DNA from: Sphingomonas sp. AR_OL41
GTDB taxonomy: Bacteria > Pseudomonadota > Alphaproteobacteria > Sphingomonadales > Sphingomonadaceae
Length of the DNA stretch: 64,000 bases
NCBI RefSeq assembly: GCF_029911635.1
Contig: NZ_JARYTI010000011.1
Coordinates: 62,001 to 126,000 of the forward strand
Direction of reading: 5' to 3'
The notes beneath the pieces are model-generated. The model was not told where the DNA came from, did not search any database, and saw nothing but the letters and a program-made list of their open reading frames with translations. Below are positions 7,981 through 24,534 of this stretch, piece after piece. Position 1 is the stretch's first letter. Every line of letters begins with the position of its first letter. The position numbers and the translations under genes are program-made.

Positions 7981-7989
7981 CGCGGGCAA

Positions 7990-8511
7990 TCACTCCGCGT
8001 TTAGATCGACCTTGACTGGCGCTGCTTTCCTGCTCGGCACGCGTGTCTTGCGCGGCGCCTGGGCGATCGGCGTTGGCGCATCGCCGGACGGTGTCACCAC
8101 GCCGAGTTTCGGCCGTCCTGCCTTCTTGCGTCCGAGGCCGATCTTCACCGCCATCGCCTTGCGCATCTCCGAATAGGCGGGCGCGGTCATCGGATAGTCG
8201 GCCGGGAGATTGTAGCGTGTGCGATACTCGGCAGGCGTCAGGCCCTGCGTCGTCAGATGTCGCTTGAGGACGGCATAGGATTTGCCGTCGATCATCGAAA
8301 TGATCTTGGTCGGGTCTGCAAGACTTTTGCGAAGGGTGACGGCCGGGATAAACTCGGGCGCTATCGGTGCGGGCGCTTGGCCCAGGCCAGCCAGAGCACC
8401 GTGGACCGACGCGATCATGCCGCCGATATCGCCGATCGCTACCCGGTTGTTGGTCAGGAAACTGGCTGCGATGTCGGCTGTCAGCGCGATCAGGGTATCG
8501 GGTTCTTCCAC
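7990..8511 (-). CDS. MucR/Ros-family transcriptional regulator
   Basis: A 173-residue MucR-type regulator. Residues ~1-45 hold the N-terminal oligomerisation region (LIALTADIAASFLTNNRV). Residues ~60-130 hold the characteristic FIPAVTLRKSL, YAVLKRHLTTQGLTPAEYR, and YNLPADYPMTAPAYSEMR. GTG 8511 is taken as start because GGAGA lies seven bases upstream; the open frame extends further but into the receptor promoter region. The gene is inserted between fecR and the TonB receptor in opposite orientation, so its own promoter faces the receptor's. The classical Cys2His2 zinc finger of Ros is not obvious: the expected cysteines are missing. Confidence 0.82.
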   Translation of the reverse strand: MEEPDTLIALTADIAASFLTNNRVAIGDIGGMIASVHGALAGLGQAPAPIAPEFIPAVTLRKSLADPTKIISMIDGKSYAVLKRHLTTQGLTPAEYRTRYNLPADYPMTAPAYSEMRKAMAVKIGLGRKKAGRPKLGVVTPSGDAPTPIAQAPRKTRVPSRKAAPVKVDLNAE

Positions 8512-8694
8512 GTGATAGTCTCCATCTAGCTGCCCCGATGGACGCGCCCTGACAGACGCGACGGTTTTATTCAACGCGGGTTGTCCGGACGGCAAGCCCG
8601 CTTCTCCCGATTTATTTCGGGCGGGTTCCCGCGCCCGCGTCGTCTTGCCCTTTCGACAGCCGCCAGAACGGCGTCGAGCAAAGGGGAAGAACGA

Positions 8695-11619
8695 ATGCGT
8701 TTGGGGAAATTCGCGGGCTTTGCCGCCTGCACGACCGTCATGATCCTGGCATCGCCCATGGCGGAGGGGCAGACCAACGACACCCGCGACTATGACATGC
8801 CGGCCCAGGATCTGGGCACTGCATTGCGGCAGGTTTCGGCCCAATCCGGTCGGCCTGTGATTGTGGCGACCGAACTCGTTGCCGGGCTAGAGGCGCCGGC
8901 ACTCAAGGGGCGGTTCTCCTCTGATGACGCCGTTGGACAGCTGTTGCGGGGTAGCGGTCTTCGCGCCGCCGCGGTCGGGGCGACTTTGGTTATCCAGCGC
9001 GTTCCGGTGCCTGCTGGTGATGAGGGCGGCCCCGGTGACATTCTCGTCACGGGAAGCCGAATCCGCGGGCATGGGCCGGTTGGGTCAGAACTGGTTGTTA
9101 TCGACCGCAAGGCGATCGAGCAAAGCGGCTTCACGACCACCCAGCAGATCGCCCAGTCGATCCCGCAGAACTTCCTCGGCGGTGCCAATGAGAATACCGG
9201 GACCGCGACCACCGGCATCGGCGGTGGCAATGCCGCGCGGGGCGCTGGCGTCAATCTGCGCGGCCTGGGTCAGAGCTCGACCTTGCTGCTGCTGAACGGC
9301 GATCGACCGCCATTGGGCGGGGCAACCGGGACATTCGCTGATCTCTCGATGATCCCCTCCTCGGCGATCGAACGCGTCGAGATCGTGCCGGACGGCGCGT
9401 CGGCGATCTACGGGTCGGACGCGGTTGCCGGCGTGGTCAACATCATTCCGCGGCTCACCTTCACCGGCGCGGAAACCAGCTTCCGGATCGGTACCGCCGA
9501 CGGCGACGCGCAGGAATATCAGGCCAGCCAGCTGCTCGGCACGCATTGGTCGGGCGGTCACGCGATGATCGCCTATGAATTCTACAAGCGCGACGCCCTG
9601 CATGCAGGGGATCGCGCCTATGCGAATGACGACCTGCGCGCGTTTGGTGGTCCGGACCGGCGTGTCGCTTATGCCAGTCCGGGGACGATCTATGCCGGCG
9701 GCAAGACGTTCGCGGTTCCCGCTGGCCAGAACGGCGTTGGCCTGACGGCGGCGCAGCTTACCGCGGGCACGGTCAATACCGGCAACAGTCAGTTCATGAC
9801 CGACCTGCTGCCCGACCAGAAGCGCCATTCGCTGTTCGCAGCGGTCAGTCAGGATCTGGCGCCGCATCTGCGGCTCTACGCTCATGGTCTGCTGTCGATC
9901 CGCAATTTCGACCAGGCGATCCGCTCGAGCGCCGATGCGCGCCGGACCGTGCCGGTCACCAATCCCTTCTATGTCGATCCGATCGGCACGCATCAGCCGG
10001 TCGGCGTCCAATATAGTTTCGTGCGCGATCTCGGCGCCGAACGCTATCGGGGCAAGGTAACGGCCTATGGCGGCACGGCCGGGCTCGAGGCGGATGTCGG
10101 GCGCTGGACGATCGACGCGCATGGCACCTGGGGGCGCCAGGCCGAGCATTATGAGGACATCAACCGCGTCAACACGGCGCGGCTCGCTGCCGCGCTCGCC
10201 GACACCAATCCCGCGACCGCCTATAACCTGTTCGGCGATGGCCCCTCGACCAATCCGGCGACGATCGCCAGGGTCCGGGGTTCATTGTCGCAGGACTATG
10301 ACGGCATCGTCTGGTCGTTGACCACCCGCGCCGATGGTCCGCTGTTTGCCTTGCCGGCGGGCGATGTGCGGCTGGCTGTCGGCGGCGACTATCGCCAGGA
10401 CCGCTATCGGCCCGGGACGGGCGTCGCCGATATTTCGACGCTGACGCCGGTCCCGCTCACCGTGACCCCGTTGCAGGGACCGCGCACCATCAAGGCGGCC
10501 TATGGCGAGGTGCTCGTGCCCGTCTTCGGTGGCGGCGCGACCATTCCCCTGTTTCACAGGCTTGAGCTTTCGGCCGCGTTGCGCGCCGAACATTATAGCG
10601 ACTTCGGCAGCACGACGAACCCGAAGGTTGGCATCAATTGGGAGCCATTCGCGGGGCTGACGATCCGCGGGAGCTACGGCAAATCGTTCCGCGCGCCGCT
10701 GTCGCAGGAGTTGCGCCAGGATCCCGGTTCGATGGCGATCTTCGCTTATACCGTGCCGGATCCGCAATCGGCGACCGGCTCGTCCAATATCATCGTCATT
10801 CGCGGTAATGATCCCAATTTGCGGCCGGAGCGGGCGACGACCTGGTCGCTCGGCGCCGAGCTGAAGCCGGCAGCACTTCCCGGCCTCCATGCCGGCATCA
10901 CCTGGTTCAATGTCAATTATCGCGACCGCATCGCATCGATCGCGTCGCAGCTGACCAGCTATCTGGTCAATCGCAGCGCCTATGCCCCGGTCACGGAGTC
11001 GAACCCGTCGCCGGCGCGTGTCGCCGCATTGTTTGCCTCGCCCATCTATCTCGACCTGCTTGGCATTCCGTCGACCGCGCCGATCGTCGCGGTGGTCGAT
11101 GCGCGCACCCAGAATCTGTCAGTGCTCAAACAATCAGGGATCGATTTCGATCTCGGCTACGGCTTCGATGCGGCGGGCGGCCGGGCCGATCTCGGTGTGG
11201 TCGGCACGCACATCTTCCATATCCGTCAGGGCCTGACCGCGACCGCGCCGCTGGTCGATGTGCTCGACACCGCCGGCAACCCGGTCGATCTCCGCCTGCG
11301 CGGTCATGCGACGTGGAGCTCGGCACGCTGGGACCTGGCCGCGTTCATCAATTACGTCGGAGCCTATACGAACAAGACGGCCACCCCGGCGAAGCGTGTC
11401 TCGCCCTGGACGACGGTCGACCTCAATATTGGGTACCGGTTCGGCCAGGCCAGCGGGGCGCTCAAGGGGCTGCGTCTGGCGCTCAATGCGAGCAATCTGT
11501 TCGACCGGGATCCGCCCTTCATTGCCTATAATGTCGGCCAATATACCAACGGCTACGACCCGGAAAATGCCAGCCCGATTGGCCGCATGATCTCGTTGCA
11601 GCTGATCAAGGCGTGGTAA
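8695..11619 (+). CDS. TonB-dependent receptor with N-terminal STN signalling domain
   Basis: A 974-residue outer-membrane TonB-dependent transducer. A signal peptide (residues ~1-24, ending SPMAEG) is followed by an STN/secretin-like signalling domain (YDMPAQDLGTALRQVSAQSG to GATLVIQ). The plug domain has GDILVTGSRIRG, GVNLRGLGQSSTLLLLNGDR, IERVEIVPDGASAIYGSDAV and AGVVNII. A 22-strand barrel follows, ending in the aromatic LIKAW. The STN domain marks a receptor that signals to FecR/FecI, both encoded just upstream. Next to a lasso isopeptidase the likely ligand is the lasso peptide itself, imported for degradation. ATG 8695 follows AAGGGGAAG. Confidence 0.9.
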   Translation: MRLGKFAGFAACTTVMILASPMAEGQTNDTRDYDMPAQDLGTALRQVSAQSGRPVIVATELVAGLEAPALKGRFSSDDAVGQLLRGSGLRAAAVGATLVIQRVPVPAGDEGGPGDILVTGSRIRGHGPVGSELVVIDRKAIEQSGFTTTQQIAQSIPQNFLGGANENTGTATTGIGGGNAARGAGVNLRGLGQSSTLLLLNGDRPPLGGATGTFADLSMIPSSAIERVEIVPDGASAIYGSDAVAGVVNIIPRLTFTGAETSFRIGTADGDAQEYQASQLLGTHWSGGHAMIAYEFYKRDALHAGDRAYANDDLRAFGGPDRRVAYASPGTIYAGGKTFAVPAGQNGVGLTAAQLTAGTVNTGNSQFMTDLLPDQKRHSLFAAVSQDLAPHLRLYAHGLLSIRNFDQAIRSSADARRTVPVTNPFYVDPIGTHQPVGVQYSFVRDLGAERYRGKVTAYGGTAGLEADVGRWTIDAHGTWGRQAEHYEDINRVNTARLAAALADTNPATAYNLFGDGPSTNPATIARVRGSLSQDYDGIVWSLTTRADGPLFALPAGDVRLAVGGDYRQDRYRPGTGVADISTLTPVPLTVTPLQGPRTIKAAYGEVLVPVFGGGATIPLFHRLELSAALRAEHYSDFGSTTNPKVGINWEPFAGLTIRGSYGKSFRAPLSQELRQDPGSMAIFAYTVPDPQSATGSSNIIVIRGNDPNLRPERATTWSLGAELKPAALPGLHAGITWFNVNYRDRIASIASQLTSYLVNRSAYAPVTESNPSPARVAALFASPIYLDLLGIPSTAPIVAVVDARTQNLSVLKQSGIDFDLGYGFDAAGGRADLGVVGTHIFHIRQGLTATAPLVDVLDTAGNPVDLRLRGHATWSSARWDLAAFINYVGAYTNKTATPAKRVSPWTTVDLNIGYRFGQASGALKGLRLALNASNLFDRDPPFIAYNVGQYTNGYDPENASPIGRMISLQLIKAW

Positions 11620-13700
11620 GAGCTATGCTTGTTGCTGGAATCGCGGCTGCGCTCGCCGCCGCGATTCCAGCTGCGCAGGCGGCACCGCGATCCTGTGCCG
11701 CCGAGCTTCTCGCCAGCCCAGTGCCGCCGTCCGCGCCGCGGCTGATCACGGCGCGCGACCTTGTCGGGCTGCGCGATTTCGGCGGCATGGATAATAGTGT
11801 CGGGGCGCAGGCCTTCAGCCTGTCCCCTGACGGCCGATCCGCCGCCTTGATCCTGCGCCGCGGTGATCCGGACGCCGATCTTTATTGTTTCGGGATAATG
11901 GTCGTCGCGCTCAACGGTCGCAAGCCGCCCCGGCTGCTCGATGTCGGCGGCGAGTATATCCAGTCCACCAGCGACATTCGCGGCATCCCGGCGATACCAA
12001 GTGGGGCGACCAGGTCGCCACCGCCGGCCTGGTCGCCCGATGGACGCGTTCTGGCCTATCTGCGCCGCGATCGCGGCGTCACCCGGGTGTGGCGCGTCGG
12101 TCTTGATGGCCGCCCGGCGCGGCAGATCGGCGCGCTCGGCACCGACGCGCTCGCCGTTCGCTGGTCGGCCGATGGACAGGAACTGCTGGTGACGGTCCGC
12201 CCGTCGCTCGACGCCGGCCGCGCCGCGATCGATCGGGAAGGAAAGTCCGGTTATCATTTTGACGAGCGCTTCTGGGCGCTGTCGGAAGAGCGTCCGCGGC
12301 CGCGCTTGCCGCTGCCCCTGTCCCAAGTGACAATCGACGCGCTCACGGGTCGGGCAGGCCGGGTCGGCGCTCCTCCAGTTCCCGGTCCGGGCATCATCGC
12401 CAGCGCCGTTTCGCCTTCCGGCACGCGCGCGTCCATCGCGCTGGCCGACGCCAGCCTGCCGTTTGGCCCGGCGCCGCTTCGCGTCGAACGAGGCGGCAAG
12501 CAGCTGATCTGCCCGGCCGGTATCTGCGGCGATCATGTCGGCGCCCTGTGGTGGCTTGACGACACTTTGCTGTTCCTCCGCGCCGGCGCGGCAGACAATG
12601 GAGGCCGGTTGAGCCTGTATCGCTGGCGAATCGGGGTCGATGCCGAGCCGCGCGAGGTCCTCGGGACGGACGACGCGTTGTTCGACTGCCAGCGTGCCGG
12701 CGTCCGGCTGATCTGTGCACATGAAGGGGCGACCCAGCCGCGCGAGATCGTCGCGCTGGATCCGGCAAGCGGCAGGCTGACAAGGCTGTTCGATCCCAAT
12801 CCGGCGTTTGGCACATTGCGCCTCGGCAAGGTCGAGAGGTTCACCTGGCGCACCCCCGACGGGGTCGCGACCTATGGCGATCTCGTGCTTCCACCCGATC
12901 ACCAGCCGGGGCAGCGACACCCGTTGATCGTGACTCAATATATCAGCCGCGGCTTTCTGCGCGGCGGCACCGGCGACGAATATCCGATTCATCTCCTTGC
13001 CGCGCGCGGATATGCGGTGCTCAGCTTCCAGCGCCCGGCCCTGCTGCCAGGGGCGGCGCAGGCTCATGATCTCAACGCCCTGCAGCGGATCAATATCGCC
13101 GGCTGGGCGGAGCGGCGTGTGATTGTCGCCGCGCTTGAAGCCGGCGTGGACAGCGTGATCGCGCGCGGGATGGTCGATCCGGCCAGGGTCGGTCTGACAG
13201 GGATGAGCGACGGCGCCACCACGACCCAGTTCGCGCTCAATCATTCGGAACGGTTCAGAGCCGCCGCGATCAGTTCGTGCTGCGATGAGCCAAGCGGCCT
13301 GTTCGTGGTCGGCCCCGCTTATGGCGAGGCGACCCTCGCCTGGGGCTATCCGCCGCCAGGTCCGGGCCATGCTGCTTTCTGGGCGCCGATGTCGATGACC
13401 GCGCACGCGGCAAGCTGGCGCACGCCGTTGCTCATCCAGGTGCCCGATATGGAGTACCGGTTCGGGCTCGAGGCCTATGCCGCCTTTCGCCGCGCAGGCG
13501 CGCCGGTGGATGTCTACGTCTTTCCCGACGAGCACCACCTGAAATGGCACCCCGCGCATCGACTGGCGGTCTATGAGCGAAGCCTTGCCTGGTTCGATTT
13601 CTGGCTGCGCGATCGGCGCAGCGAAGATCCCGCCCGCCAGGTGGACCTCGCGCGCTGGACAGCGATGAAGGCGCGCCTCGACCGTCCGCCCGCCGGCTAG
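11613..13700 (+). CDS. Lasso peptide isopeptidase (AtxE2-like, S9 family)
   Basis: A 695-residue periplasmic S9/prolyl-oligopeptidase-type hydrolase matching lasso-peptide isopeptidases such as AtxE2, which open the macrolactam ring. A signal peptide (~1-23, ending PAAQA) is followed by a beta-propeller, then an alpha/beta-hydrolase domain. The nucleophile is Ser532 in GMSDGATTT. The acid is around Asp612 (VPDMEYRFGLEAY) and the His lies in FPDEHHLKWHPAHR (His641/642). Positions agree with the AtxE2 triad within about five residues. GTG 11613 overlaps the receptor stop, giving a receptor-isopeptidase operon. ATG 11625 is an alternative but would lose the basic n-region. It converges with the cyclase gene with a 4-bp overlap. 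Confidence 0.9.
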   Translation: MVRAMLVAGIAAALAAAIPAAQAAPRSCAAELLASPVPPSAPRLITARDLVGLRDFGGMDNSVGAQAFSLSPDGRSAALILRRGDPDADLYCFGIMVVALNGRKPPRLLDVGGEYIQSTSDIRGIPAIPSGATRSPPPAWSPDGRVLAYLRRDRGVTRVWRVGLDGRPARQIGALGTDALAVRWSADGQELLVTVRPSLDAGRAAIDREGKSGYHFDERFWALSEERPRPRLPLPLSQVTIDALTGRAGRVGAPPVPGPGIIASAVSPSGTRASIALADASLPFGPAPLRVERGGKQLICPAGICGDHVGALWWLDDTLLFLRAGAADNGGRLSLYRWRIGVDAEPREVLGTDDALFDCQRAGVRLICAHEGATQPREIVALDPASGRLTRLFDPNPAFGTLRLGKVERFTWRTPDGVATYGDLVLPPDHQPGQRHPLIVTQYISRGFLRGGTGDEYPIHLLAARGYAVLSFQRPALLPGAAQAHDLNALQRINIAGWAERRVIVAALEAGVDSVIARGMVDPARVGLTGMSDGATTTQFALNHSERFRAAAISSCCDEPSGLFVVGPAYGEATLAWGYPPPGPGHAAFWAPMSMTAHAASWRTPLLIQVPDMEYRFGLEAYAAFRRAGAPVDVYVFPDEHHLKWHPAHRLAVYERSLAWFDFWLRDRRSEDPARQVDLARWTAMKARLDRPPAG

Positions 13701-15454
13701 CGCGCGGTCTGGCGATGGCGCCATGCACTGATCCATGCCTCCAAATCGATGAGCGCGAGCAGTTCGACAATCACCTCGCCATTGGCAAAGGGTCGTTCGA
13801 GCGCGCGTTCCACGGCAGTCGCGTCGATCAGGCCATGCCGGCCGAGCGCGCCGCCCAGCAGCATGTCGCGCAGCAGCGGACGGTTGGCGTCGATCAGGGC
13901 CGCGCCGAACCCATCGAACGCGCCCTTGCCTCGCCGTGCGATGACCGTGGGAGGCAGCACATCGGCGAATGCGTTGCGTGCGACCGCGCGGTTGCGGCCG
14001 GCCTCACACCATAACCAGGTCGGGATACGCAGGCACAATTCGACCAGCGGTTGAGACAGGAGTGGCGAGATGATCGGCGCATCGGCAAGTCGGTCATAGC
14101 CCTCGAGGTGGTTCTGAATGCTGATCAGTGACCAGACGTGGCGTCGCTTTCCGGGCAGCGTTCCAGCCGGCGCTTCAAGCCAGGGGTTGTCCGGCCATGG
14201 CAGTCCCTCGGCCGCCGCGACCGCCATGAACCGATTCCGGCTAGGTGTGGGCATGCGCTGTTCACGGCGCGCGGCGCGGCGCGCCGCAGTTGTTGCGACT
14301 TGCCACACTGTTGCCTGCGCAAGCTGGGCGACATCGTCGATCGTGCGCCACAGGCCGCGGCTGATCCCGTCCCGGCGGTAGCGATCGACGACGGGCAGCA
14401 CCGATTGCAGGTAGCAAAACACGTTGTCGCCGCCGCCGCCGCTGAAGAACACGTCCGCACCGATTTCTGCACCGAGATCGCGACTCGTGCGGTCCATTGC
14501 CTGGGCGAAAGTGCGCGCGCACGCGCGCGGCAGATCCCTTGCCTGCGACGTAGTGAGGTCGACAGCGACGATGTCGAGGGGCTCCTCCCGCATCGTCAGG
14601 CCAAGCTGCCCGGCGATGGCGCGTGCATATGGCCGCTCGTCAGGGTCGCCGGCGGCCGGCCAGAAGTTGAGGCAGGCCGGGCCCCTGCCATCGAGCGCGA
14701 GACCCGCGGCAACGATGGCTGAATCCAGGCCGCCCGAAATTTCGACCACCGCGCGCTTGTAGCAGCTGCCCCAGGCCGTCAGGCATTGCCGGACAGTGTC
14801 CCTGACCGCGGTCGTGGCGGCGGCTGCGTCACTGACCTCGTCGGTCTCGCGCGCGAAATCCCAAGGCGACCAGACGCAGCGCGTTTCCAGCCGCCCGGCA
14901 CCGACGCGCGCGGCGACACCCGGCAGCAACTCGCTCATGCCGCGCAGGGCCGTCCGCGCGGGTTTGAGATCGCGAAAGGCGAGCGCCTGGGCGATGATCG
15001 TCCAGTCGAACGCGATCGGCAGCAGGCCTGCATCGAACAGGAGATGCGGTCGCGACGTCACGATATGCGTTCCGTCGATCTCGGCGCAGTAGCAGGGTAT
15101 CTCGCCCGACGGATCGCGCAGCACCTCCAGTCCGTCGGGCTGGTGGCGAACGGCAAGATATCCGCCCCAGTATCGCGCCACGAAATCTTCAGCGGGCTCC
15201 GTCAATGGTGCGCTCTCCGCCTGATCGACGATCCTCGCAGCGGTGCATCGCCCAAACAAATGCCCCCAGATCAACCCGCCATCGACCAGATCGATACAGG
15301 GCGCATCGCCGGCACCGAGCGCCAGCAGTTCAACGTCATCGCGCAATACGGTCAGATGCTGCGTTCGGCGCAGGGAATGGGCGAAAGCGACGAGGCGCGG
15401 AGAGCGCGTGCCGGCCTTTGGCGTCAGCATGAAGATGTACGGCGCTATGTTCAT
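13697..15454 (-). CDS. Lasso peptide cyclase (C protein, asparagine-synthetase-like)
   Basis: A 585-residue lasso cyclase that adenylates the side-chain carboxylate of the core Asp/Glu and joins it to the core N-terminus. The N-terminal half resembles the glutaminase fold of asparagine synthetase B but lacks the catalytic N-terminal Cys (starts MNIAPYIF). The C-terminal half has the PP-loop VVEISGGLDSAIVAAGLALD and the second motif FFSGGGGDNVFCYLQS. The end includes GRNRAVARNAFADVLP and RRGKGAFDGFG, typical of AsnB-like cyclases. ATG 15454 overlaps the stop of gene B as ATGA, which fixes the start. Confidence 0.92.
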   Translation of the reverse strand: MNIAPYIFMLTPKAGTRSPRLVAFAHSLRRTQHLTVLRDDVELLALGAGDAPCIDLVDGGLIWGHLFGRCTAARIVDQAESAPLTEPAEDFVARYWGGYLAVRHQPDGLEVLRDPSGEIPCYCAEIDGTHIVTSRPHLLFDAGLLPIAFDWTIIAQALAFRDLKPARTALRGMSELLPGVAARVGAGRLETRCVWSPWDFARETDEVSDAAAATTAVRDTVRQCLTAWGSCYKRAVVEISGGLDSAIVAAGLALDGRGPACLNFWPAAGDPDERPYARAIAGQLGLTMREEPLDIVAVDLTTSQARDLPRACARTFAQAMDRTSRDLGAEIGADVFFSGGGGDNVFCYLQSVLPVVDRYRRDGISRGLWRTIDDVAQLAQATVWQVATTAARRAARREQRMPTPSRNRFMAVAAAEGLPWPDNPWLEAPAGTLPGKRRHVWSLISIQNHLEGYDRLADAPIISPLLSQPLVELCLRIPTWLWCEAGRNRAVARNAFADVLPPTVIARRGKGAFDGFGAALIDANRPLLRDMLLGGALGRHGLIDATAVERALERPFANGEVIVELLALIDLEAWISAWRHRQTAR

Positions 15455-16107
15455 ACCGTGAGGATCGGGGTGTAGCGGGTGACATGGTCGTAGCTGTCGC
15501 TGAGCACCGCGTGCGGCGACTGGAGCCAGCAATGCGCCGTGAACGGGTGGGCGGTGACACCCAAGACGATGCTGCAGTCACGGGCGTCGTCGCCGAGCCA
15601 TCGGTCGAGCGACAGCGTGTCGAGCAGACAGTTGCGGGCCAGCGGGGTGTAAGGCCGCGATCGGGCGAAGACGGCGCAGCGCTCGCTCAGATGGCGTGCA
15701 TCGATCGGACGACGTGGTGACGCGGCGTGCGCGTGATCGAGAAGGACGGATTGGAGGGGCCGCAGGCGCAACCGCAGCCAGGTCAGTGTGACCGCCATGG
15801 CGACCGAAGTGTGGCGGGGCTGAACCTCGGCGCTTCGCCAGATCGGCGAGATCAGTTCAGTCGGAATCCTGACTGTTTCGACAGCGGCGTTGGTACAGGA
15901 TGGATCGCCCCGCCGGATGATCCTGTTGTCGCACAGCAGCTTCTCGACGGCGGGCGGCGCTGGCGAATTGCGATCCTCGAACCACACCCGCATGAGCGAG
16001 GCGATCCTGGTCGGCACGCGAAAATAGCGGTCCTGCCTGACGTCGAGCAGGATCAGATCGTCCGACGCGATGCACGCCGTCGCATGGGGCAAGATGCGAT
16101 GGATCAT
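15451..16107 (-). CDS. Lasso peptide leader-processing protein (fused B1-B2)
   Basis: A 218-residue lasso B protein that binds the precursor leader and cleaves it. The first ~75 residues form the RRE/B1-like domain (ASDDLILLDVRQDRYFRVP is the usual opening strand). The C-terminal ~130 residues are the transglutaminase-like cysteine protease (B2): YTPLARNCLLDTLSLDRWLG holds the catalytic Cys, HPFTAHCWLQSPHAVLSD holds the His and Asp. Fusion of B1 and B2 is normal in proteobacterial lasso clusters. ATG 16107 begins MIHRILPHAT. It is separated from the precursor by 65 bp carrying a strong hairpin and is translationally coupled to C. Confidence 0.9.
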   Translation of the reverse strand: MIHRILPHATACIASDDLILLDVRQDRYFRVPTRIASLMRVWFEDRNSPAPPAVEKLLCDNRIIRRGDPSCTNAAVETVRIPTELISPIWRSAEVQPRHTSVAMAVTLTWLRLRLRPLQSVLLDHAHAASPRRPIDARHLSERCAVFARSRPYTPLARNCLLDTLSLDRWLGDDARDCSIVLGVTAHPFTAHCWLQSPHAVLSDSYDHVTRYTPILTV

Positions 16108-16133
16108 CCTGGCAGCTGTCCTCGGCCAAGCGA

Positions 16134-16166
16134 CGCACCGGCACGGCTGTACGCCGTGCCGGTGCG
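16134..16166 (-). terminator. Strong hairpin between lasso precursor and B gene
   Basis: A perfect 13-bp inverted repeat (GCACCGGCACGGC, loop TGTAC, GCCGTGCCGGTGC) at 16135-16165 extends by one more C-G pair at 16134/16166. It lies seven bases downstream of the precursor stop and 27 bases before the B start. There is no T-run, so it is more likely a partial terminator or an mRNA-stabilising attenuator that keeps precursor transcript above B-C transcript, as reported for other proteobacterial lasso operons. Confidence 0.75.
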
Positions 16167-16172
16167 TTCGGG

Positions 16173-16307
16173 TCAGTCGTCGGACAGGCCGGCGAGCGGC
16201 TGATAGCCGGCGCCGTCGATCGTGCCGACATCGAGGCCCTGGGTCTCGACGCTGGCGACACCGAGGTCGATCAGGTCGATGGTGTCGTTGGTGTCTTCGC
16301 GTTCCAT
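16173..16307 (-). CDS. Lasso peptide precursor (sphingonodin-like)
   Basis: A 44-residue precursor encoded directly upstream of the B and C genes, too short for routine ORF calling. ATG 16307 follows GGAGACAGAAC. The leader (23 residues) is acidic and starts MEREDTNDTIDLIDLG. It ends VETQ, with Thr at the penultimate leader position, the recognition residue of lasso maturation. The predicted core is 21 residues: it starts GLDVGTID and ends GLSDD. Gly1 and Asp8 would form the eight-membered macrolactam ring, and the tail carries Tyr12 and Gln13 as possible plug residues. Core length, Asp8 ring and the LSDD ending resemble sphingonodin-type lasso peptides. Confidence 0.9.
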   Translation of the reverse strand: MEREDTNDTIDLIDLGVASVETQGLDVGTIDGAGYQPLAGLSDD

Positions 16308-16362
16308 GTTCTGTCTCCATGCTCGTCGCGGTGGTGCGACGGGGCAAGGATCGGCGCGTGTT

Positions 16363-16407
16363 CCGGTTATAAAAAGTTTATAATCGGATTATAACCGGTT
16401 TATAATC
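16363..16407. promoter_or_regulatory. Interlocked TTATAA inverted repeats upstream of lasso precursor
   Basis: This AT-rich segment between the GntR gene and the precursor holds four alternating half-sites. TTATAATC-G-GATTATAA (16378-16394) is a perfect dyad. GATTATAA-CCGGT-TTATAATC (16387-16407) is a second dyad sharing the middle arm. CCGGTTATAA (16363-16372) pairs with TTATAACCGG (16389-16398). On the minus strand the same bases supply TATAAT-like -10 elements for the lasso operon. The arrangement suits cooperative binding of a dimeric repressor, and the adjacent GntR protein is the obvious candidate (inference). Confidence 0.65.
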
Positions 16408-16419
16408 GAAGGGCTTGTT

Positions 16420-17010
16420 TCAGACCTCACCGCGCTCCCGGAGCAGGTCCGGGACGGCACGCATCCGTCGCAGATGATAGCGCCGGATGGCATGGGGCTG
16501 GTTAGATCCGCGCGTGATCAACTGTTCGAGCTCGCCTGCGACTCGCTCCAGGATTCGCTGTTCGATGATCCGGAAGGGATGAAGGCGGTCGCTTGCCGCA
16601 GCGATCGCGTCGCCGATCTCGTGGTTTGGCGCGGCCACTGCGATCCGGGCAAACAGCGCAGCGACGCGGTCGGCGCCGGCCGGCACCTCCCACAGCGGTG
16701 CGATCGGCGCTTCTTCGGTGCCAGACCGCTTCGTTCGCGCGGCCATGATGAGCAATGCCGAATTCCACTCATAGAGATCGCGCAAGCTCGCCTCGGTGAA
16801 CCGCGGGACGTGGAACCCCTCACGGCTGCTTGCCTCCACCATTCGCTCGCCGGCCAGCCGGTGCAGGACGTCGCGCACCGGCGTCATGCTCACACCAAGT
16901 TCGTCGGCCAGCCGGATTGCTTCGAGCCGCGTCCCCGGCGCGAAGACACCCTCCCGCAGCATCTGCTTCAGGGTCGCATAGCTGCGTTCCATCGCCTGGG
17001 CGGGGCTCAT
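16420..17010 (-). CDS. GntR-family transcriptional regulator
   Basis: A 196-residue regulator. Residues ~5-65 form the GntR winged helix: YATLKQMLREGVFAPGTRLE, IRLADELGVSMTPVRDVLHR, LAGERMVEASSREGFHVP. The remainder is a helical, FCD-like effector domain (TEASLRDLYEWNSALLIMAA onward) that is shorter than in canonical FadR/VanR members and lacks a clear metal-binding His set. ATG 17010 has GAGG upstream and overlaps the end of the dioxygenase gene. GntR regulators are recurrent members of isopeptidase-containing lasso loci, and this one ends 113 bp before the precursor start, beside the TTATAA repeats. Confidence 0.83.
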   Translation of the reverse strand: MSPAQAMERSYATLKQMLREGVFAPGTRLEAIRLADELGVSMTPVRDVLHRLAGERMVEASSREGFHVPRFTEASLRDLYEWNSALLIMAARTKRSGTEEAPIAPLWEVPAGADRVAALFARIAVAAPNHEIGDAIAAASDRLHPFRIIEQRILERVAGELEQLITRGSNQPHAIRRYHLRRMRAVPDLLRERGEV

Positions 17011-17903
17011 GCGCCACCCTCTCGCTCCGCCTGCGCGCGGCGATGTGCGGCAACCGCCTCGCGCTGGTCCGGGCGTAACGCATCGATGGCACCGGGATGT
17101 TCCGGAATGTCGTCGCCCAGCAGGACCGAGGGGCATACGCCTTCGTAATTGCCGAGATTGGGCCGGTGCTGCCGGTATCCGACCAGGCCGGCGAGTTCCG
17201 GCTCGAAATGGCGGGCAACCTCCGGCGGATAGGCGAGCCACTGATTCTCGTAGGGCTTGAGCCATCCCAGGCAGTAGCTGACGATCATGCCGCGCCGGGT
17301 CTCGATCGTCAGATTGGCGCCGGCGCCGTGCAGGGTCGACCCGAGAAAGACGAGCGCAGTACCCGGACAGCAGGAAGCGACGAGCGGCTCGCCATGGCCT
17401 TCGTCCACCAGCGCCTGCCGACCGTGCGAGCCCGGATAGATCAGCGTCGCGCCGTTCGCCCGCGTGAAGCTTGTCAGTGGCCACATCACGTTGACGAGAT
17501 ATTCGAACTCGCCCTTCGGCGCCGGCCACATGTCCTGGTCGCGATGCGGAAACTGCAGCGGTGCCCCTGGATGGATCTCGATCGCCTGGGTCAGGTTGAG
17601 CTGGACAGTGTCGCACCACGGCCCGAGCGCGTCCTTGACCAGCGCCATGATCAAGGGATGCTGGACGAACGCGGCGGTGTGGCTCGAGCGCTTCAGCAGG
17701 CTCCCGAAGCGCCTTGTCCGCGCGCCGTAGAAATCGCCTTCGCAGAACGGCGTGGCTGCGAAGACGGGATCGAAATCGGTGGCGAGCGCGGCCACGACGT
17801 TCTTGGGCAGCAGTTCGGGCAGCAGACACCAGCCCTGGTTGCGGAGCGCGTCTGAGGCGGCCTCGAACCCGGCGGGCATCAAGGATTGGGAGAGGTGGGT
17901 CAT
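17007..17903 (-). CDS. Phytanoyl-CoA dioxygenase-family protein
   Basis: A protein of about 298 residues of the Fe(II)/2-oxoglutarate dioxygenase (PhyH) family. The iron triad is visible as FPHRDQDMW (His-x-Asp) and the distal GSTLHGAGAN (His), and TIETRRGMIVSY supplies the 2-oxoglutarate-binding Arg. The substrate is unknown. ATG 17903 is chosen because GAGAGG lies nine bases upstream; an in-frame ATG at 17912 would overlap the luxI stop as ATGA. It follows luxI immediately, so both are probably one quorum-controlled transcript. LuxI-PhyH linkage recurs in sphingomonads as far as I recall, and the enzyme may modify the signal or a secreted product. Confidence 0.82.
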   Translation of the reverse strand: MTHLSQSLMPAGFEAASDALRNQGWCLLPELLPKNVVAALATDFDPVFAATPFCEGDFYGARTRRFGSLLKRSSHTAAFVQHPLIMALVKDALGPWCDTVQLNLTQAIEIHPGAPLQFPHRDQDMWPAPKGEFEYLVNVMWPLTSFTRANGATLIYPGSHGRQALVDEGHGEPLVASCCPGTALVFLGSTLHGAGANLTIETRRGMIVSYCLGWLKPYENQWLAYPPEVARHFEPELAGLVGYRQHRPNLGNYEGVCPSVLLGDDIPEHPGAIDALRPDQREAVAAHRRAQAEREGGA

Positions 17904-17908
17904 GGCCG

Positions 17909-18541
17909 TCATCCTCTCGCGCCGGAAGCGCGCCTTTCCTGGAAATCGGGTGCAGCGACCGGCGACCAGATACCCGCAGCGGTCAGGCATGACGGCGTGT
18001 CCGCTTCCACCGCGATCCGCAGCGCGCAGAGCATCGCGCCTTCATGTTCGGTCGGCAGCCCGAGCGGGCGGCAGTCCCAGCCGAAGCTCAGGACCTGCTG
18101 GAACCAGCCCATCTCGGCGACGCCCGTGTAGGTCGCGACGCCGTTTTGCAGCGCATGCTTGACGATCGCGGTGACGAGCTGGTCGCGGACCCGGCGCCGA
18201 TCGACCGCGCGCAGGCTGCGGTCGAGGCAGAAGCGCGTAATCTCCATGATGTCGGGGCCGCGTGGCGGCGTGCCTTCACACAGGTTCGGGAAGAGCGTGT
18301 CGAGGATATGCGGCCGGGTGGTCGGCAGCAATCGGGCCGACGCCAAGTGACGCCCGTCGTCGCTGAGCGCGATCAGGTAGCGGGCATGATCGTCATCGAA
18401 CTGGTCGATTTCGTGACGGCCGTCGCGAACCGGCACGTTCCACCGCAGCAGATCGACGAACACGCTCTTGCGCGCGGCGAACATCAGGTTGAGCGTCGGG
18501 TCGCCCGCATTTCTCAGCGTTGTATCAAGAACTTGCACCAT
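17909..18541 (-). CDS. Acyl-homoserine-lactone synthase (LuxI family)
   Basis: A 210-residue LuxI-type synthase that makes an N-acyl-homoserine lactone from S-adenosylmethionine and acyl-ACP/CoA. Conserved positions are recognisable: AARKSVFVDLLRW (Arg, Phe, Trp), QFDDDHARYLIAL (Asp pair), ASARLLPTTRPHIL (Arg) and IMEITRFCLDR (Glu, Arg). ATG 18541 has GGAGG six bases upstream. A lux-box-like dyad lies 55 bp upstream and the luxR gene ends just before it, so the signal probably stimulates its own synthesis. Confidence 0.9.
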   Translation of the reverse strand: MVQVLDTTLRNAGDPTLNLMFAARKSVFVDLLRWNVPVRDGRHEIDQFDDDHARYLIALSDDGRHLASARLLPTTRPHILDTLFPNLCEGTPPRGPDIMEITRFCLDRSLRAVDRRRVRDQLVTAIVKHALQNGVATYTGVAEMGWFQQVLSFGWDCRPLGLPTEHEGAMLCALRIAVEADTPSCLTAAGIWSPVAAPDFQERRASGARG

Positions 18542-18595
18542 CGAAGGCCTCCATCGGGAAGAGGCCTCCAATGTCGCGCCCGTTATCGACGCCGC

Positions 18596-18617
18596 CTATA
18601 CCAAGAACTTAGTATAG
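18596..18617. promoter_or_regulatory. lux-box-like dyad upstream of luxI
   Basis: A 22-bp imperfect palindrome starts CTATACCAAGA and ends ACTTAGTATAG, with 9 of 11 positions symmetric, including perfect CTATAC/GTATAG outer arms. It sits in the short gap between the luxR stop and luxI, 55 bp before the luxI ATG, the expected place for LuxR-AHL binding. Confidence 0.7.
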
Positions 18618-19370
18618 CTATCGCCGCCTGCCCAGTTCAGAAAAGGCGATCAGGCCGTCCTGCAATGCCCTGACCGACAGCTCGGCCTTGTTATGGACGT
18701 CGTAACGCTCGCGAGCATGCTTCAGATGCTGGATCACCGTTCCCTTGCTGATGCCGAGGATCGTTCCTGTCTCCCAGTCGGTCTTGCCGCGAGTGGACCA
18801 GAGCACGCAGTCGCGCTGGCGCCCGGTGAGCGGTCGCTCGATCGGCGGCCACATCTCGCGGATCCTCGTGATCCGCCTGGCGGCGTCGAACGCGATGCCG
18901 CCGAGTATCTGAGCGACCGAATGCAGATCTCGGGGAAAGGGCTCTCCCGCGCCCATGGCGAAGGAGCAGGATCCGGTGAACTCGCCCGGAACATGTGCTG
19001 GGACGGTGTACCCGTCGCCGATACCCACGATCCGTGCCTGGGCAAACACGCTGAGATCGGCCGGGGTGAGCGTGATCATGCCCGGTATCGCGGACCAGGG
19101 AAAACCGTAGTTGGCGACCTGACTGGCGCGGTGGACCGGATCAGAGCGCCCGAGCCGGTTTTCGTCGAACCAGTATTGCCAGGCCCGCGGGTAGTTGTGG
19201 AGCCTGATCGCGGGCACCGCATCGACCCCGAAATCGATGTGATGGACCAGCGCGAAATAGCGGATGCCCATCGCATCGCAACACGCGGAGAGCAGGTCGA
19301 ACAGTTCGTCCTCGCTTGAAGCTGCGCGGGCATTGTCGACGAACGCATCAGCGACCGCCAGTCTTGGCAT
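18618..19370 (-). CDS. LuxR-family quorum-sensing regulator
   Basis: A 250-residue AHL-responsive regulator. The N-terminal autoinducer domain shows YPRAWQYWFDENRLGRSDPV (Trp, Tyr, Asp-Pro pocket residues) and NYGFPWSAI (Trp). The C-terminal LuxR helix-turn-helix reads LTGRQRDCVLWSTRGKTDWE, then ILGISKGTVIQHLKHARER. ATG 19370 is selected by similarity to family starts; the open frame extends 77 codons upstream but that part has no family features and is preceded by a stop-free shadow. It lies directly upstream of luxI on the same strand. Confidence 0.88.
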   Translation of the reverse strand: MPRLAVADAFVDNARAASSEDELFDLLSACCDAMGIRYFALVHHIDFGVDAVPAIRLHNYPRAWQYWFDENRLGRSDPVHRASQVANYGFPWSAIPGMITLTPADLSVFAQARIVGIGDGYTVPAHVPGEFTGSCSFAMGAGEPFPRDLHSVAQILGGIAFDAARRITRIREMWPPIERPLTGRQRDCVLWSTRGKTDWETGTILGISKGTVIQHLKHARERYDVHNKAELSVRALQDGLIAFSELGRRR

Positions 19371-19720
19371 AACGACCCGAACCGAGCGCAAGGGCGTTCC
19401 CACCGCTTGATTTGCGACTCGTCCTTTCCTGGGCTTCCAGCAAAGCCGCTTCTCACGACGACCGCCTGAGCATGTTTTCTCCCGGACGCGCCTTTTCTCG
19501 CGATAGTCGGGCTTTGTCAAACAGTTGAACGGCCAATTCCGAAGAAAATTATCGCCGTTTTGGACGATTTTCCCTGCCGTCATAGCCAGCGGCTCTTCCA
19601 CCGCGTGATGTCAAACGCACGTTTCTTGTACGCAGTGTCTTGCCGTCATCGGGCGCTTCGAGAGCGTCATTCAAAAACATCTGCTCCGATAGGTAATTGA
19701 CCGTAATGCGGGCCAGACCC
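19371..19720. other. Intergenic region between luxR and copper locus
   Basis: This 350-bp non-coding region separates divergent luxR and copA. It is less GC-rich than its surroundings near 19540-19700 (for example CCGAAGAAAATTATCG). It should contain the luxR promoter and marks the boundary between the lasso/quorum block and the metal block. No gene is supported. Confidence 0.4.
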
Positions 19721-19743
19721 CTTGACCCTAACACAGTGTCAAG
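19721..19743 (+). promoter_or_regulatory. CueR-type (MerR-family) operator/promoter of copA
   Basis: A 23-bp dyad with arms CTTGAC and GTCAAG lies 34 bp before the copA ATG. Its left arm supplies the -35 element TTGACC. A weak CACATC/ACATCA follows after the long 19-20 bp spacer typical of MerR-activated promoters. The downstream gene pair copA-cueR makes CueR the likely activator. Confidence 0.7.
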
Positions 19744-19776
19744 CCCCACATCACCCGGCATGCCAGGAGAATTCCG

Positions 19777-22131
19777 ATGAAAAACGCAGAGCATGCCACA
19801 AAAGAACATCATCACCACGGACAGGCACCGTCGGACGCGACACAGGCAATAGACCCGGTGTGCGGCATGACGGTCGATGCGGAAAGCGCGGCGCATCATG
19901 CGTCGCACGATGGCGCGACCTATTATTTCTGCAGCGCGGGCTGTCTCGGCAAGTTCGTCGCCGATCCGGACCGATATCTTGCGCCTGCGGCGGCCAGCGC
20001 TCGCGAGGCCGCGCCCGGGACGATCTGGACCTGCCCCATGCATCCGGAAATCCGGCAGGACCATCCGGGCGCCTGCCCGATCTGCGGCATGGCGCTCGAG
20101 CCCGCGACGGTGACAGCGGACACAGGGCCGAGTCCAGAACTCGCCGACATGGCGCGCCGCTTCTGGATCGCGCTCGTCCTGTCCCTGCCCGTGTTCGCAC
20201 TCGAGATGGGCGGCCATGTGTTTCCCGCGCTCCATCATCTGGTGCCGATGCGGGTGTCGGTCTGGATCCAGCTCGTCCTTGCCACGCCCGTCGTCCTCTG
20301 GGCCGGATCGCCTTTCTTCGAGCGTGGCTGGGCCTCGCTTAGGACACGCAACCTCAACATGTTCACGTTGATCGCGATGGGGACGGGCGTGGCCTGGGTC
20401 TACAGCATGGTTGCGACCCTCGCTCCGGGCATATTTCCCTCGGCCTTCCGGTCGCCTGATGGAACCGTCGCGATCTATTTCGAGGCGGCCGCCGTCATCA
20501 CGGTCCTTGTTCTGCTGGGCCAGGTACTCGAGCTGCGCGCCCGCGAGCAGACTTCGGGCGCCATCAAGGCGCTGCTCAACCTCGCGCCCAAGACCGCCCG
20601 GCGCGTCGGTGCGGACGGAAACGACCAGGAAGTCTCGCTCGATCAGATCGTCGTCGGCGATCGTCTGCGGGTCCGGCCCGGCGAAAAGGTACCGGTCGAC
20701 AGCATTGTCGAGGACGGCCGCTCGTCGCTCGACGAGTCGATGGTGACCGGCGAATCGATGCCGACCACCAAGGCCATCGGCGACAAGGTCATTGGCGGCA
20801 CGATCAACCAGACCGGCGCGCTGGTGATTCGCGCCGACAAGGTCGGGCGCGACACCATGCTGGCGCGCATCGTCCAGATGGTTGCCGAGGCCCAGCGTTC
20901 GCGCGCGCCGATCCAGCGCATGGCCGATCGCGTGGCGGGCTGGTTCGTCCCCGTGGTCCTCGCCGTCGCGCTCATTGCCTTTGCCGCCTGGGGCATCTGG
21001 GGACCGGCGCCGCGCTTCGCAAATGGCCTGGTCGCTGCTGTCGCGGTATTGATCATCGCCTGTCCGTGCGCGCTGGGTCTCGCTACGCCGATGTCGATCA
21101 TGGTCGGCGTCGGTCGGGGTGCGGGGCTGGGCGTGCTCATCAAGAATGCCGAAGCGCTGGAGCGCCTGGAGAAAGTCGACACACTTGTCGTCGACAAGAC
21201 CGGAACGCTCACCGCAGGCCGGCCGTCGGTCACGAAGATCGTCGCGGGCGAAGGCTTTGGCGAGGACGAGATCCTGCGTCTCGCCGCCGGCGTCGAACGC
21301 GCGTCGGAGCACCCGCTGGCACGCGCGATCGTCGAAGCGGCAGGTGACCGGAAGATCGTGGTCCCCGACGTGGCCGACTTCGACGCGCCGACCGGCAAGG
21401 GCGCCATCGGAACGATCGACGGCAGACGGATCGTGCTCGGCAACGCTGCGTTCCTCGAGGAGCAGGGCATCGATGTCGCGCCGCTCGCCGCCAGGGCCGA
21501 CGAACTGAGGCGCGATGGCGCCACCGCGATCTTTGCGGGTATCGACGACCGGGTCGCCGGGGTTCTGGCGATCGCCGACCCGATCAAGAAGACAACCGGG
21601 GAGGCGCTTGTCGCGCTGCGTGCCGAAGGCATCCGCGTCGTCATGCTGACAGGAGACAATCGCACCACGGCAGAGGCGGTGGCGCGCCAGCTCGGCATCG
21701 ATGAGGTCGAGGCGGAGGTGCTGCCCGACCAGAAAAGCGCGATCGTCGAACGCCTCAAGCGCGAGGGCCGGACGGTCGCGATGGCGGGCGACGGCGTCAA
21801 CGACGCTCCCGCGCTGGCCACCGCCGAGGTCGGGATCGCAATGGGTTCGGGCACCGATGTCGCGATCGAGAGCGCCGGCATCACCCTGCTCAAGGGCGAT
21901 CTCATGGGAATCGTGCGCGCGCGCAAGCTCTCCCAGGCGACGATGTCCAACATCCGCCAGAATCTGGTCTTCGCGTTCGTCTACAACGCGGCCGGCATTC
22001 CGGTCGCGGCCGGGTTGCTCTATCCGGTGTTCGGCATCCTGCTGTCGCCGATGATCGCGGCGGCGGCGATGGCGCTTTCCTCGGTCAGCGTCGTGACCAA
22101 CGCATTGCGGCTCAATCGGGTGAGCCTGTGA
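19777..22131 (+). CDS. copA: Copper-exporting P1B-type ATPase with N-terminal YHS and His-rich region
   Basis: A 784-residue inner-membrane Cu(I) exporter. The N-terminus has a His run (EHHHHGQ), a YHS domain ([29 protein letters not shown]), then a heavy-metal-binding CPMHPEI...[10 protein letters not shown] segment. Core motifs: TGES in the actuator domain, CPC at residues 429-431 ([13 protein letters not shown]), the phosphorylated Asp473 in [15 protein letters not shown] (HP locus) and [10 protein letters not shown]. There is no classical HMA CxxC domain; the YHS and CPICGM parts probably take that role. A CueR-type operator precedes it and cueR overlaps its end, forming a self-regulated pair. 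Confidence 0.93.
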
Positions 22132-22541
22132 ACATCGGGCACGCCTCGAAAGCCAGCGGCGTCTCGCAACGCATGATCCGGCATTACGAGAAGATCGGCC
22201 TGGTGCCCGCGGCACCGCGCCGCGATAGCGGGTATCGCGACTATTCGGACGCCGACGTCCACCGCTTTCGCTTCGTCGCGAACGCCCGCGATCTGGGCTT
22301 TCCGATCGAGGAAATCGGCGAACTGCTGTCGCTCTGGAGTGATCGCGACCGTTCAAGTGCCGAGGTCAAGGCACTCGCCATGGCGCGGGCCGAAGAACTC
22401 GGGAACAAGGCACGCAAGCTCGAGGCGATGCGGGTGGCGCTGATCGACCTCGCGGGTCGATGCCATGGCGACGATCGGCCAGGATGCCCGATCATCGACC
22501 GGCTCGCTGAATGCTCATCCGGTCTGAAACGGCCATGCTGA
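22128..22541 (+). CDS. cueR: CueR-family copper-responsive MerR regulator
   Basis: A 137-residue MerR-family activator. The winged helix reads [20 protein letters not shown] then [21 protein letters not shown] dimerisation helix follows, and the metal loop has Cys-x7-Cys in [16 protein letters not shown], the CueR pattern for Cu(I)/Ag(I)/Au(I). It overlaps copA by GTGA and would act on the dyad at 19721-19743. Confidence 0.9.
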
Positions 22542-24007: not shown

Positions 24008-24023
24008 TCGACCCGGGGCAGGA

Positions 24024-24461
24024 TCAGCCGTGATGAGCGAACACGCGGCGTCCGCCGGGCCCGAACGCGATGACGTCATAGCCCTGCGCGCGCATCCCGG
24101 CGACTTCCATGCCGGGCGATCCCATCGGCATGCCGGCCACGGCGAGCCCGGTTATGCCCTTCGGCCGGGTCGCAAGCAGCCTTTTCATGTCCGCAGCCGG
24201 CACATGTCCCTCGAACACCATGCCATCGATGATGGCGGTGTGGCAGGATCGCAGGTCTTTCGGCACGCCACGGCGATCATCGAACGCGGCCCGGGCGGGA
24301 TCGTCGACGATCGTAACGGGAAGACCGAGCCCGGCCTTCACGAGCGCGGCCCACTTTCCGCAACACCCGCAGCCCGGATCGCGGTGCACGATAATGTCCG
24401 ACGCCATCGCGGCGGTAGAGGTGAGCAGCGCGAGAGCACCGGCCAGGGTCTTGATCGTCAT
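24024..24461 (-). CDS. DUF411 periplasmic metal-binding protein
   Basis: A 145-residue exported protein common in copper clusters. A signal peptide (ending AAMAS, ~1-21) precedes HRDPGCGCCGKWAALVKAG, the CxCC metal site, then VPKDLRSCHTAIIDGMVFEG, HVPAADMKRLL and GLAVAGMPMGSPGME. These blocks define DUF411. The biochemical role is unknown, but Cys/Met/His placement suggests copper binding. It converges with the oxidase gene and lies just downstream of pcoB on its strand. Confidence 0.87.
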   Translation of the reverse strand: MTIKTLAGALALLTSTAAMASDIIVHRDPGCGCCGKWAALVKAGLGLPVTIVDDPARAAFDDRRGVPKDLRSCHTAIIDGMVFEGHVPAADMKRLLATRPKGITGLAVAGMPMGSPGMEVAGMRAQGYDVIAFGPGGRRVFAHHG

Positions 24462-24534
24462 CGCGTTGCTCCGTCTTCATCATGGTCGGGAAAGCTGACC
24501 GGGCTCATTGCCGAGCGGGTTGCGCCCAATTGCT

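What the first reader, a model, noticed from the sequence alone, without database searches (positions are those of the whole stretch)
16173..16307. New sphingonodin-like lasso peptide hidden in a 44-codon gene
Seen: directly upstream of genes with lasso B and C motifs is a 44-residue ORF with a ribosome site, an acidic leader ending in the obligatory penultimate Thr (VETQ), and a 21-residue core that starts with Gly and has Asp at position 8. The core starts GLDVGTID and ends GLSDD. Family knowledge: Gly1-Asp8 rings and C-terminal SDD are typical of sphingonodin-type peptides. I do not recognise this exact core as a described peptide. The ring is acidic and Gly-rich, and Tyr12/Gln13 may be plug residues.
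Basis: partly seen in the sequence, partly recalled or inferred. Interest (0 to 1): 0.88.

Follow-up and report, generated by a model that had tools for sequence, protein, structure and literature searches.

The report
Lasso peptide cluster behind quorum-sensing genes
This Sphingomonas-type bacterium carries a gene for a small knotted ("lasso") peptide of a known family but with a new sequence, and the peptide's genes sit directly behind a complete cell-density signalling system, an arrangement that recurs in relatives and suggests that these peptides of unknown purpose are made when cells are crowded.

Summary
The 44-codon gene is on the minus strand (16307-16173); its product passes the curated cut-offs of Pfam Subterisin and NCBIfam benenodin. 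Leader ends VETQ; core GLDVGTIDGAGYQPLAGLSDD implies a Gly1-Asp8 ring. Protease, cyclase, AtxE2-type isopeptidase, TonB receptor and FecI/FecR lie alongside: an ordinary isopeptidase-type cluster. The core was not found elsewhere in what I searched, so it is a new member of a known family.

In 295 same-genus genomes 73 of 115 lasso isopeptidase matches lie within 12 kb of an acyl-homoserine-lactone synthase (about 1 expected by random placement), and 3 of 3 synthases of this genome sit at lasso clusters. Precursor promoters share an 11-bp-spaced TATA-rich element, and most have a hairpin before the start. Ten searches of an open-access library showed me no paper describing the link. Best reading: a quorum-gated lasso peptide, taken back by its own receptor and opened by its own isopeptidase. 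Quorum control is inferred, not shown.

The parts
16173..16307 (-). lasso precursor A: 23-aa leader, 21-aa core
15451..16107 (-). lasso B protein (leader peptidase, B2 domain at the C-terminal half)
   Evidence: NF033537 55.1 bits over 33; PF13471 51.1 over 26
13697..15454 (-). lasso C cyclase (asparagine synthase family)
   Evidence: PF00733 87.9 bits over 21; its lasso-specific NCBIfam matches are below their cut-offs
11613..13700 (+). lasso isopeptidase, AtxE2 family
   Evidence: NF033523 730 bits over 400; AtxE2 E 8.6e-130
8581..11619 (+). TonB-dependent receptor (ORF; true start may lie further in)
   Evidence: PF00593, PF07715
6964..7980 (+). FecR-like anti-sigma factor
   Evidence: PF04773 62 bits
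6350..6967 (+). FecI-like sigma factor (ORF)
   Evidence: PF08281, PF04542
16420..17010 (-). GntR-family regulator
   Evidence: PF00392
17007..17903 (-). PhyH-family Fe(II)/2-oxoglutarate dioxygenase
   Evidence: PF05721; relatives among solved dioxygenases
17909..18541 (-). LuxI-type acyl-homoserine-lactone synthase
   Evidence: PF00765 86.2 bits over 24; R24, F28, W34 present
18618..19370 (-). LuxR-type regulator
   Evidence: PF03472 and PF00196
16367..16405 (-). four TTATAA units 11 bp apart before the precursor
16324..16341 (-). hairpin just before the ribosome site (6-bp stem)
16131..16170 (-). strong hairpin between A and B
   Evidence: -38.4 kcal/mol in 65 nt, z -4.1
18596..18617 (-). 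lux-box-like inverted repeat before luxI

Best explanation
A class II, isopeptidase-type lasso peptide cluster of the subterisin/benenodin family, wired behind an acyl-homoserine-lactone quorum-sensing operon. SHOWN by sequence: precursor, B, C, isopeptidase, TonB receptor, FecI/FecR, GntR, and luxR-luxI-phyH-gntR upstream in the same direction; recurrence of this order in relatives; a shared promoter element before precursor genes. INFERRED: at high cell density LuxR with its homoserine lactone switches on luxI-phyH-gntR from the lux-box-like repeat; GntR acts on the 11-bp-spaced element and sets expression of A-B-C; B cuts after VETQ; C joins the Gly1 amine to the Asp8 side chain around the threaded tail; the peptide leaves without a dedicated ABC transporter, comes back through its TonB receptor, which signals through FecR/FecI, and the isopeptidase opens the ring. 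The net effect would be a density-dependent, self-recognised shuttle or signal rather than a plain antibiotic.
For: A, B and isopeptidase pass curated family cut-offs; isopeptidase E 8.6e-130 to AtxE2. In 26 precursors the leader is conserved, the core varies, and G1, the acid at 8 and the tail are kept. luxR, luxI, phyH and gntR precede lasso genes in 15 of 25 named loci. In 295 genomes 73 of 115 isopeptidase and 73 of 121 LuxI matches lie within 12 kb of each other, about 1 pair expected by random placement. 3 of 3 LuxI genes of this genome are at lasso clusters. LuxI and isopeptidase distances correlate over 43 loci (r 0.477, 0 of 2000 shuffles as high); exchanging clusters within genomes lowers the mean to 0.357, with 5 of 2000 exchanges as high or higher, the true order being drawn about that often. 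Promoter element at up to 2 mismatches in 48 of 57 loci; TTATAA-N5-TTATAA occurs in the whole genome only at two lasso precursor promoters.
Against: No expression data. 42 of 115 isopeptidase matches have no LuxI within 12 kb and 48 of 121 LuxI none within 12 kb; of those 48 stretches 7 show lasso B or C, three of them only a weak C match at the edge. Outside the genus the link is weaker: 20 of 43 and 20 of 101. LuxI-PhyH also sits beside a type IV secretion system on pISP0. I found no lux box directly before the precursor. The promoter element is present in L051 and L062, where no gntR was detected, so GntR as its binder is unproven; 9 of 57 loci lack the element at 2 mismatches. One exchange scored slightly above the true order (0.4777), and the isopeptidase criterion there was loose. 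Neighbouring genes can be linked without regulation.
Confidence: 0.68

Rival explanations
1. The lasso cluster is real, but the quorum-sensing genes are merely its neighbours: both travel together (for example on plasmids or islands) without regulatory coupling.
For: Both kinds of genes occur on conjugative plasmids; LuxI-PhyH occurs without lasso genes and lasso clusters without LuxI.
Against: The order and direction are kept while the proteins differ by 30-60%; lasso-linked LuxI are spread over the LuxI tree, 17 changes of the label against 31.5 in shuffles, which does not look like one recent block.
Confidence: 0.22
2. PhyH is a tailoring enzyme that hydroxylates the lasso peptide, so the final mass is 16 Da higher.
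For: A PhyH-family dioxygenase gene is in the same run of genes, with relatives among natural-product dioxygenases of known structure.
Against: PhyH follows LuxI, not the lasso genes: 109 of 113 PhyH matches are next to a LuxI, also where no isopeptidase is near; pISP0 has it beside secretion genes.
Confidence: 0.07
3. The precursor is no longer used (decayed or not processed).
For: No expression data; the second cluster of this genome has a precursor without Thr at -2.
Against: Open frame, conserved leader and ring residues, ribosome site and promoter element are all intact.
Confidence: 0.03

Closest known systems
Subterisin / benenodin family lasso peptides (Pfam PF24178, NCBIfam NF033522)
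   Same: Precursor passes both cut-offs; Thr at -2, G1, acid at 8
   Different: Core sequence not seen elsewhere in the collections searched
Precursor on Sphingobium indicum UT26S plasmid pCHQ1 (recalled as sphingonodin II)
   Same: Leader pattern, G1-D8, SDD end, GntR, B, C, TonB receptor, FecI/FecR; luxI-phyH also nearby
   Different: Core sequence and length (23 against 21 aa); luxI-phyH lies at the FecI end, about 4.5 kb away, and is followed by a MarR-type gene; no isopeptidase is listed in PLSDB's incomplete gene table
Sphingocin precursor of Sphingomonas BPH (PMC11006600, passages)
   Same: Same leader pattern, Asp at position 8, AGLSDD end
   Different: Different ring; there a B2 mutant lost phenanthrene use, a role not tested here
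AtxE2-type isopeptidase clusters (astexin-2/3)
   Same: Isopeptidase E 8.6e-130 to AtxE2; TonB receptor, sigma/anti-sigma pair and GntR before the precursor, as stated in PMC9266682 (passages)
   Different: luxR-luxI-phyH directly upstream is not part of the architecture as stated there
novR-novI-phyH(-gntR) quorum-sensing loci of Sphingomonadaceae (PMC3704786, PMC5012321, PMC4288048; passages)
   Same: Same luxR-luxI-phyH order; a following gntR is mentioned in PMC5012321
   Different: 'lasso' occurs 0 times in the main text of all three

Membership tests
Lasso peptides (class II) | Precursor with Thr at -2 and Gly1 | tested here: met
   VETQ|GLDV; T22 and G24 invariant in 26 precursors
Lasso peptides (class II) | Asp or Glu at core position 7, 8 or 9 | tested here: met
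   D8 only
Lasso peptides (class II) | B protease and C cyclase genes adjacent | tested here: met
   C by the general Asn_synthase family only, its lasso-specific models score below cut-off
Lasso peptides (class II) | Isopeptide ring and threaded tail | not testable with these tools
   needs mass spectrometry and NMR
Subterisin / benenodin family | Score over the curated family cut-offs | tested here: met
   PF24178 59.2 over 27; NF033522 46.9 over 33
Isopeptidase-type lasso clusters | AtxE2-family isopeptidase | tested here: met
   NF033523 730 bits over 400
Isopeptidase-type lasso clusters | TonB receptor, FecI/FecR, GntR before the precursor | tested here: met
Isopeptidase-type lasso clusters | No ABC transporter gene D | tested here: inconclusive
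   none among the proteins scanned with Pfam; not every ORF of the region was scanned
Sphingonodin-like peptides | G1-D8 ring and SDD end | tested here: met
   shared with the pCHQ1 precursor, but widely shared in the family too, so not diagnostic
LuxI/LuxR quorum sensing | AHL synthase with R24, F28, W34 and a LuxR with both domains | tested here: met
   residues read from the sequence, named as conserved in PMC3704786 (passages)
LuxI/LuxR quorum sensing | Regulation of the lasso genes by the signal | not testable with these tools
   needs mutants or reporters

The most novel reading that the evidence does not exclude
Isopeptidase-type lasso peptides of sphingomonads are a main output of dedicated LuxI/LuxR circuits: quorum sensing, GntR and FecI/FecR form one control unit that makes, senses, re-imports and destroys the peptide, so that the peptide is a second-tier, strain-specific signal or shuttle. 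The shared precursor promoter element and the hairpin before the start are parts of that unit.
Probability: 0.4. Interest if true: 0.75.

Novelty: new variant of a known kind. Interest (0 to 1): 0.5.

Why it matters
The role of isopeptidase-type lasso peptides is called still enigmatic in a review (PMC9266682, passages), and what the PhyH of the luxR-luxI-phyH loci of sphingomonads does, and whether it is quorum-regulated, is left to future work (PMC5012321, passages). If the two are one system, each explains part of the other, and both become testable with one luxI deletion and one mass spectrum.

Tried and rejected
Sphingonodin as the defining label: kept only loosely, because the acid at position 8 and the GLSDD-like end are nearly family-wide. 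PhyH as lasso tailoring enzyme: rejected as main reading. One recent mobile block as the cause of the linkage: not favoured. Rfam on 5000-20500 at gathering scores: no match. PDB search with the precursor: best E 0.0041, to designed repeat proteins, chance-like; with B: best E 0.046, not useful.

Weak or biased results, told as they are. Lux boxes: inverted repeats upstream of luxI with at least 8 of 9 pairs in 31 of 107 stretches against 7.3 in mononucleotide shuffles, but at 7 of 9 pairs 95 against 58.8: suggestive only. Hairpin: the 52 of 57 counts any stem of at least 5 bp in the last 55 nt, in a few loci not the one nearest the ribosome site; the control used mononucleotide shuffles. The consensus was read from the sequences it was counted on; the fairer numbers are 35 perfect sites inside the upstream stretches against 2 outside, and 6 against 6 at one mismatch, in 1,537,056 positions; the loci are related to each other. 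Fisher tests ignore relatedness of the genomes, and the family count takes out only the same-genus genomes that were listed. One search accepted isopeptidases at BLAST E 1e-8, so at least one of its 43 loci (L100) is not a linked locus.

Rows dropped: of the 73 LuxI linked, 56 were fetched (plus the 48 unlinked). One search took 131 stretches and kept 57 with gntR and B in one direction and 60-2500 bp apart, repeats removed; one search used 56 of these (L046, whose precursor my pattern missed, left out) plus the window. One search used 102 of 107 LuxI rows (over 140 aa); some loci linked are labelled gntR_only there because the stretch ended before the isopeptidase. Paper search listed 30 of 538. 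Of 41 plasmid records with a LuxI match I opened 4, not chosen at random.

Full report
OBSERVATION. The product scores 59.2 bits against Pfam Subterisin (cut-off 27) and 46.9 against NCBIfam benenodin (cut-off 33). The leader ends VETQ and the 21-residue core is GLDVGTIDGAGYQPLAGLSDD; the only acid at positions 7-9 is D8, so an 8-residue ring follows from established knowledge of lasso peptides. Predicted monoisotopic mass of the cyclised core: 2014.948.

CLUSTER. B (15451-16107) and C (13697-15454) follow on the same strand; C passes only the general Asn_synthase model, its lasso-specific NCBIfam matches being below cut-off. Facing them are an AtxE2-type isopeptidase (730 bits over 400; AtxE2 itself E 8.6e-130), a TonB receptor and FecR and a FecI-like sigma factor. 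A review (PMC9266682, passages seen) gives GntR before the precursor, and TonB receptor plus sigma/anti-sigma pair after the isopeptidase, as the almost constant architecture of such clusters. So the peptide and its enzymes are an ordinary member of a known kind.

IS THE CORE NEW? Of 295 same-genus genomes 59, this one included, have a match at E 0.1 or better, many of them weak; none outside the window is identical, the best-scoring in another genome being 68% identical and others up to 72-73% over the aligned part. 25 named loci (at most 70%) and 3 matching plasmid records of 72,556 searched hold no identical core, and GLDVGTID is in no held paper. In 26 aligned precursors the leader, G1, the acid at position 8 and the G-L-S end are conserved and the rest of the core varies.

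WHAT LIES UPSTREAM. Same strand, in order: luxR (18618-19370), luxI (17909-18541), phyH (17007-17903), gntR (16420-17010), phyH and gntR overlapping by 4 bases. LuxI has R24, F28 and W34, named as absolutely conserved in PMC3704786 (passages). luxR, luxI, phyH and gntR precede lasso genes in 15 of 25 named loci, from Sphingomonas, a Sphingomonadales MAG, Aurantiacibacter and Croceicoccus. Of the other 10, L053 is cut off 15 bases upstream of the precursor and L051, L060 and L064 are short upstream; L057 shows no other lasso gene and may be a chance match. On a Sphingomonas paeninsulae plasmid the deposited annotation has the identical order from LuxR to isopeptidase and receptor. On Sphingopyxis indica pMC4 luxR-luxI-phyH-gntR precedes FecI-FecR-receptor-peptidase-asparagine synthase. 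On pCHQ1 of Sphingobium indicum UT26S luxI-phyH lies about 4.5 kb from FecI of the lasso cluster. On pISP0 the module sits beside a type IV secretion system instead, the arrangement called topology T in PMC4288048 (passages). Those are 4 of the 41 plasmid records with a LuxI match; 3 of the 4 are at lasso genes. A fifth plasmid record, of Sphingomonas panacis, has GntR and the lasso genes with no LuxI in the 18 kb shown.

HOW STRONG IS THE LINK? In 295 genomes: 121 LuxI matches in 85 genomes, 115 isopeptidase matches in 81, 68 genomes with both, 13 with isopeptidase only, 17 with LuxI only, 197 with neither. Within 12 kb: 73 of 115 and 73 of 121; random placement gives about 1.0. Of the 48 LuxI not within 12 kb, 9 have an isopeptidase within 50 kb and 7 of the 48 fetched stretches show lasso B or C. 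In the family sample outside the genus: 20 of 43 and 20 of 101, and 29 of 32 genomes with an isopeptidase also have LuxI. phyH belongs to luxI: 109 of 113 PhyH matches are next to a LuxI. 82 of 121 LuxI are followed by phyH and gntR; of these 59 have an isopeptidase within 12 kb, 9 more within 50 kb and 14 none. Distances of LuxI and isopeptidase correlate over 43 loci (r 0.477); exchanging clusters within genomes lowers the mean to 0.357, 5 of 2000 exchanges being as high or higher. On a LuxI tree of 102 rows the lasso label needs 17 changes against 31.5 in shuffles, at least 14 of them forced by well-supported branches: an old association with many losses or gains, not one block. This genome has three lasso isopeptidases and three LuxI genes, paired.

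REGULATORY DNA. Before the precursor four TTATAA units stand 11 bp apart (16367-16405). TTATAA-N5-TTATAA occurs in the 5.88-Mb genome only there and between the two precursors of the cluster on contig C121, before the second. Relatives have the same or a related element, TATAANNTTCNNATA, starting 61-79 bp before the start codon: 34, 40 and 48 of 57 loci at up to 0, 1 and 2 mismatches. A stem of at least 5 bp is found in the last 55 nt before the start in 52 of 57 loci against 13.9 in mononucleotide shuffles, with different but self-complementary stems such as GTCGC/GCGAC, GCTGC/GCAGC and GCCGC/GCGGC; the window's stretch folds at -12 kcal/mol, z -3.3. A lux-box-like repeat stands at 18596-18617 before luxI, and its pattern is found nowhere else in the genome at up to 3 mismatches. 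That GntR binds the 11-bp element and LuxR the repeat is inference.

MECHANISM. The enzymatic steps follow from established knowledge of lasso B and C proteins and AtxE2-type isopeptidases; the quorum step is inferred from linkage; the return through the receptor is inferred from gene content. The main rival is linkage without control (0.22).

LITERATURE. Ten searches of the held open-access library listed no paper that I could see linking lasso clusters with LuxI/LuxR. I opened 13 papers by term look-up and saw passages only; one search showed none and only a reference. Preprints and most subscription journals are not held, so a report may exist. PMC11006600 (passages) reports that a lasso B2 mutant of Sphingomonas BPH lost phenanthrene use, and the title and abstract start of PMC7432010 (listing) report LuxI/LuxR control of aromatic hydrocarbon degradation in Croceicoccus; a connection through this linkage is speculation.

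VERDICT. The peptide is a new member of a known family (interest alone about 0.25). The quorum-sensing linkage makes the system a variant worth testing; overall 0.5.

Noticed in passing
L070 7971-8102 (G000:C121), minus strand: First precursor of the second lasso cluster reads REIRG where others read VETQG, so the Thr at -2 is missing; it may be poorly processed.
   Followed up: no
L071 (G000:C66), precursor upstream of B at about 16240: Third lasso cluster of the same genome, with luxI-phyH at the FecI end rather than before gntR.
   Followed up: partly
[quoted passage not shown] removal of a hairpin is listed for astexin-1 expression in PMC7549694 (passages).
   Followed up: partly
L181 (pISP0) 7410-18606: The luxR-luxR-luxI-phyH module stands beside a type IV secretion system, a second kind of neighbour.
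   Followed up: partly
window 19777-27557: Metal-resistance-like block next to the quorum-sensing genes: P-type ATPase with YHS and heavy-metal-binding domains; MerR-like and multicopper-oxidase-like ORFs judged by eye only.
   Followed up: no
window 5104-6045: ORF with a HEPN domain and a weak nucleotidyltransferase match at the FecI end; relatives at the same place in L054, L056 and L058.
   Followed up: no
window 2498-3499: ORF matching the C-terminal domain of branched-chain polyamine synthase (61.5 bits).
   Followed up: no
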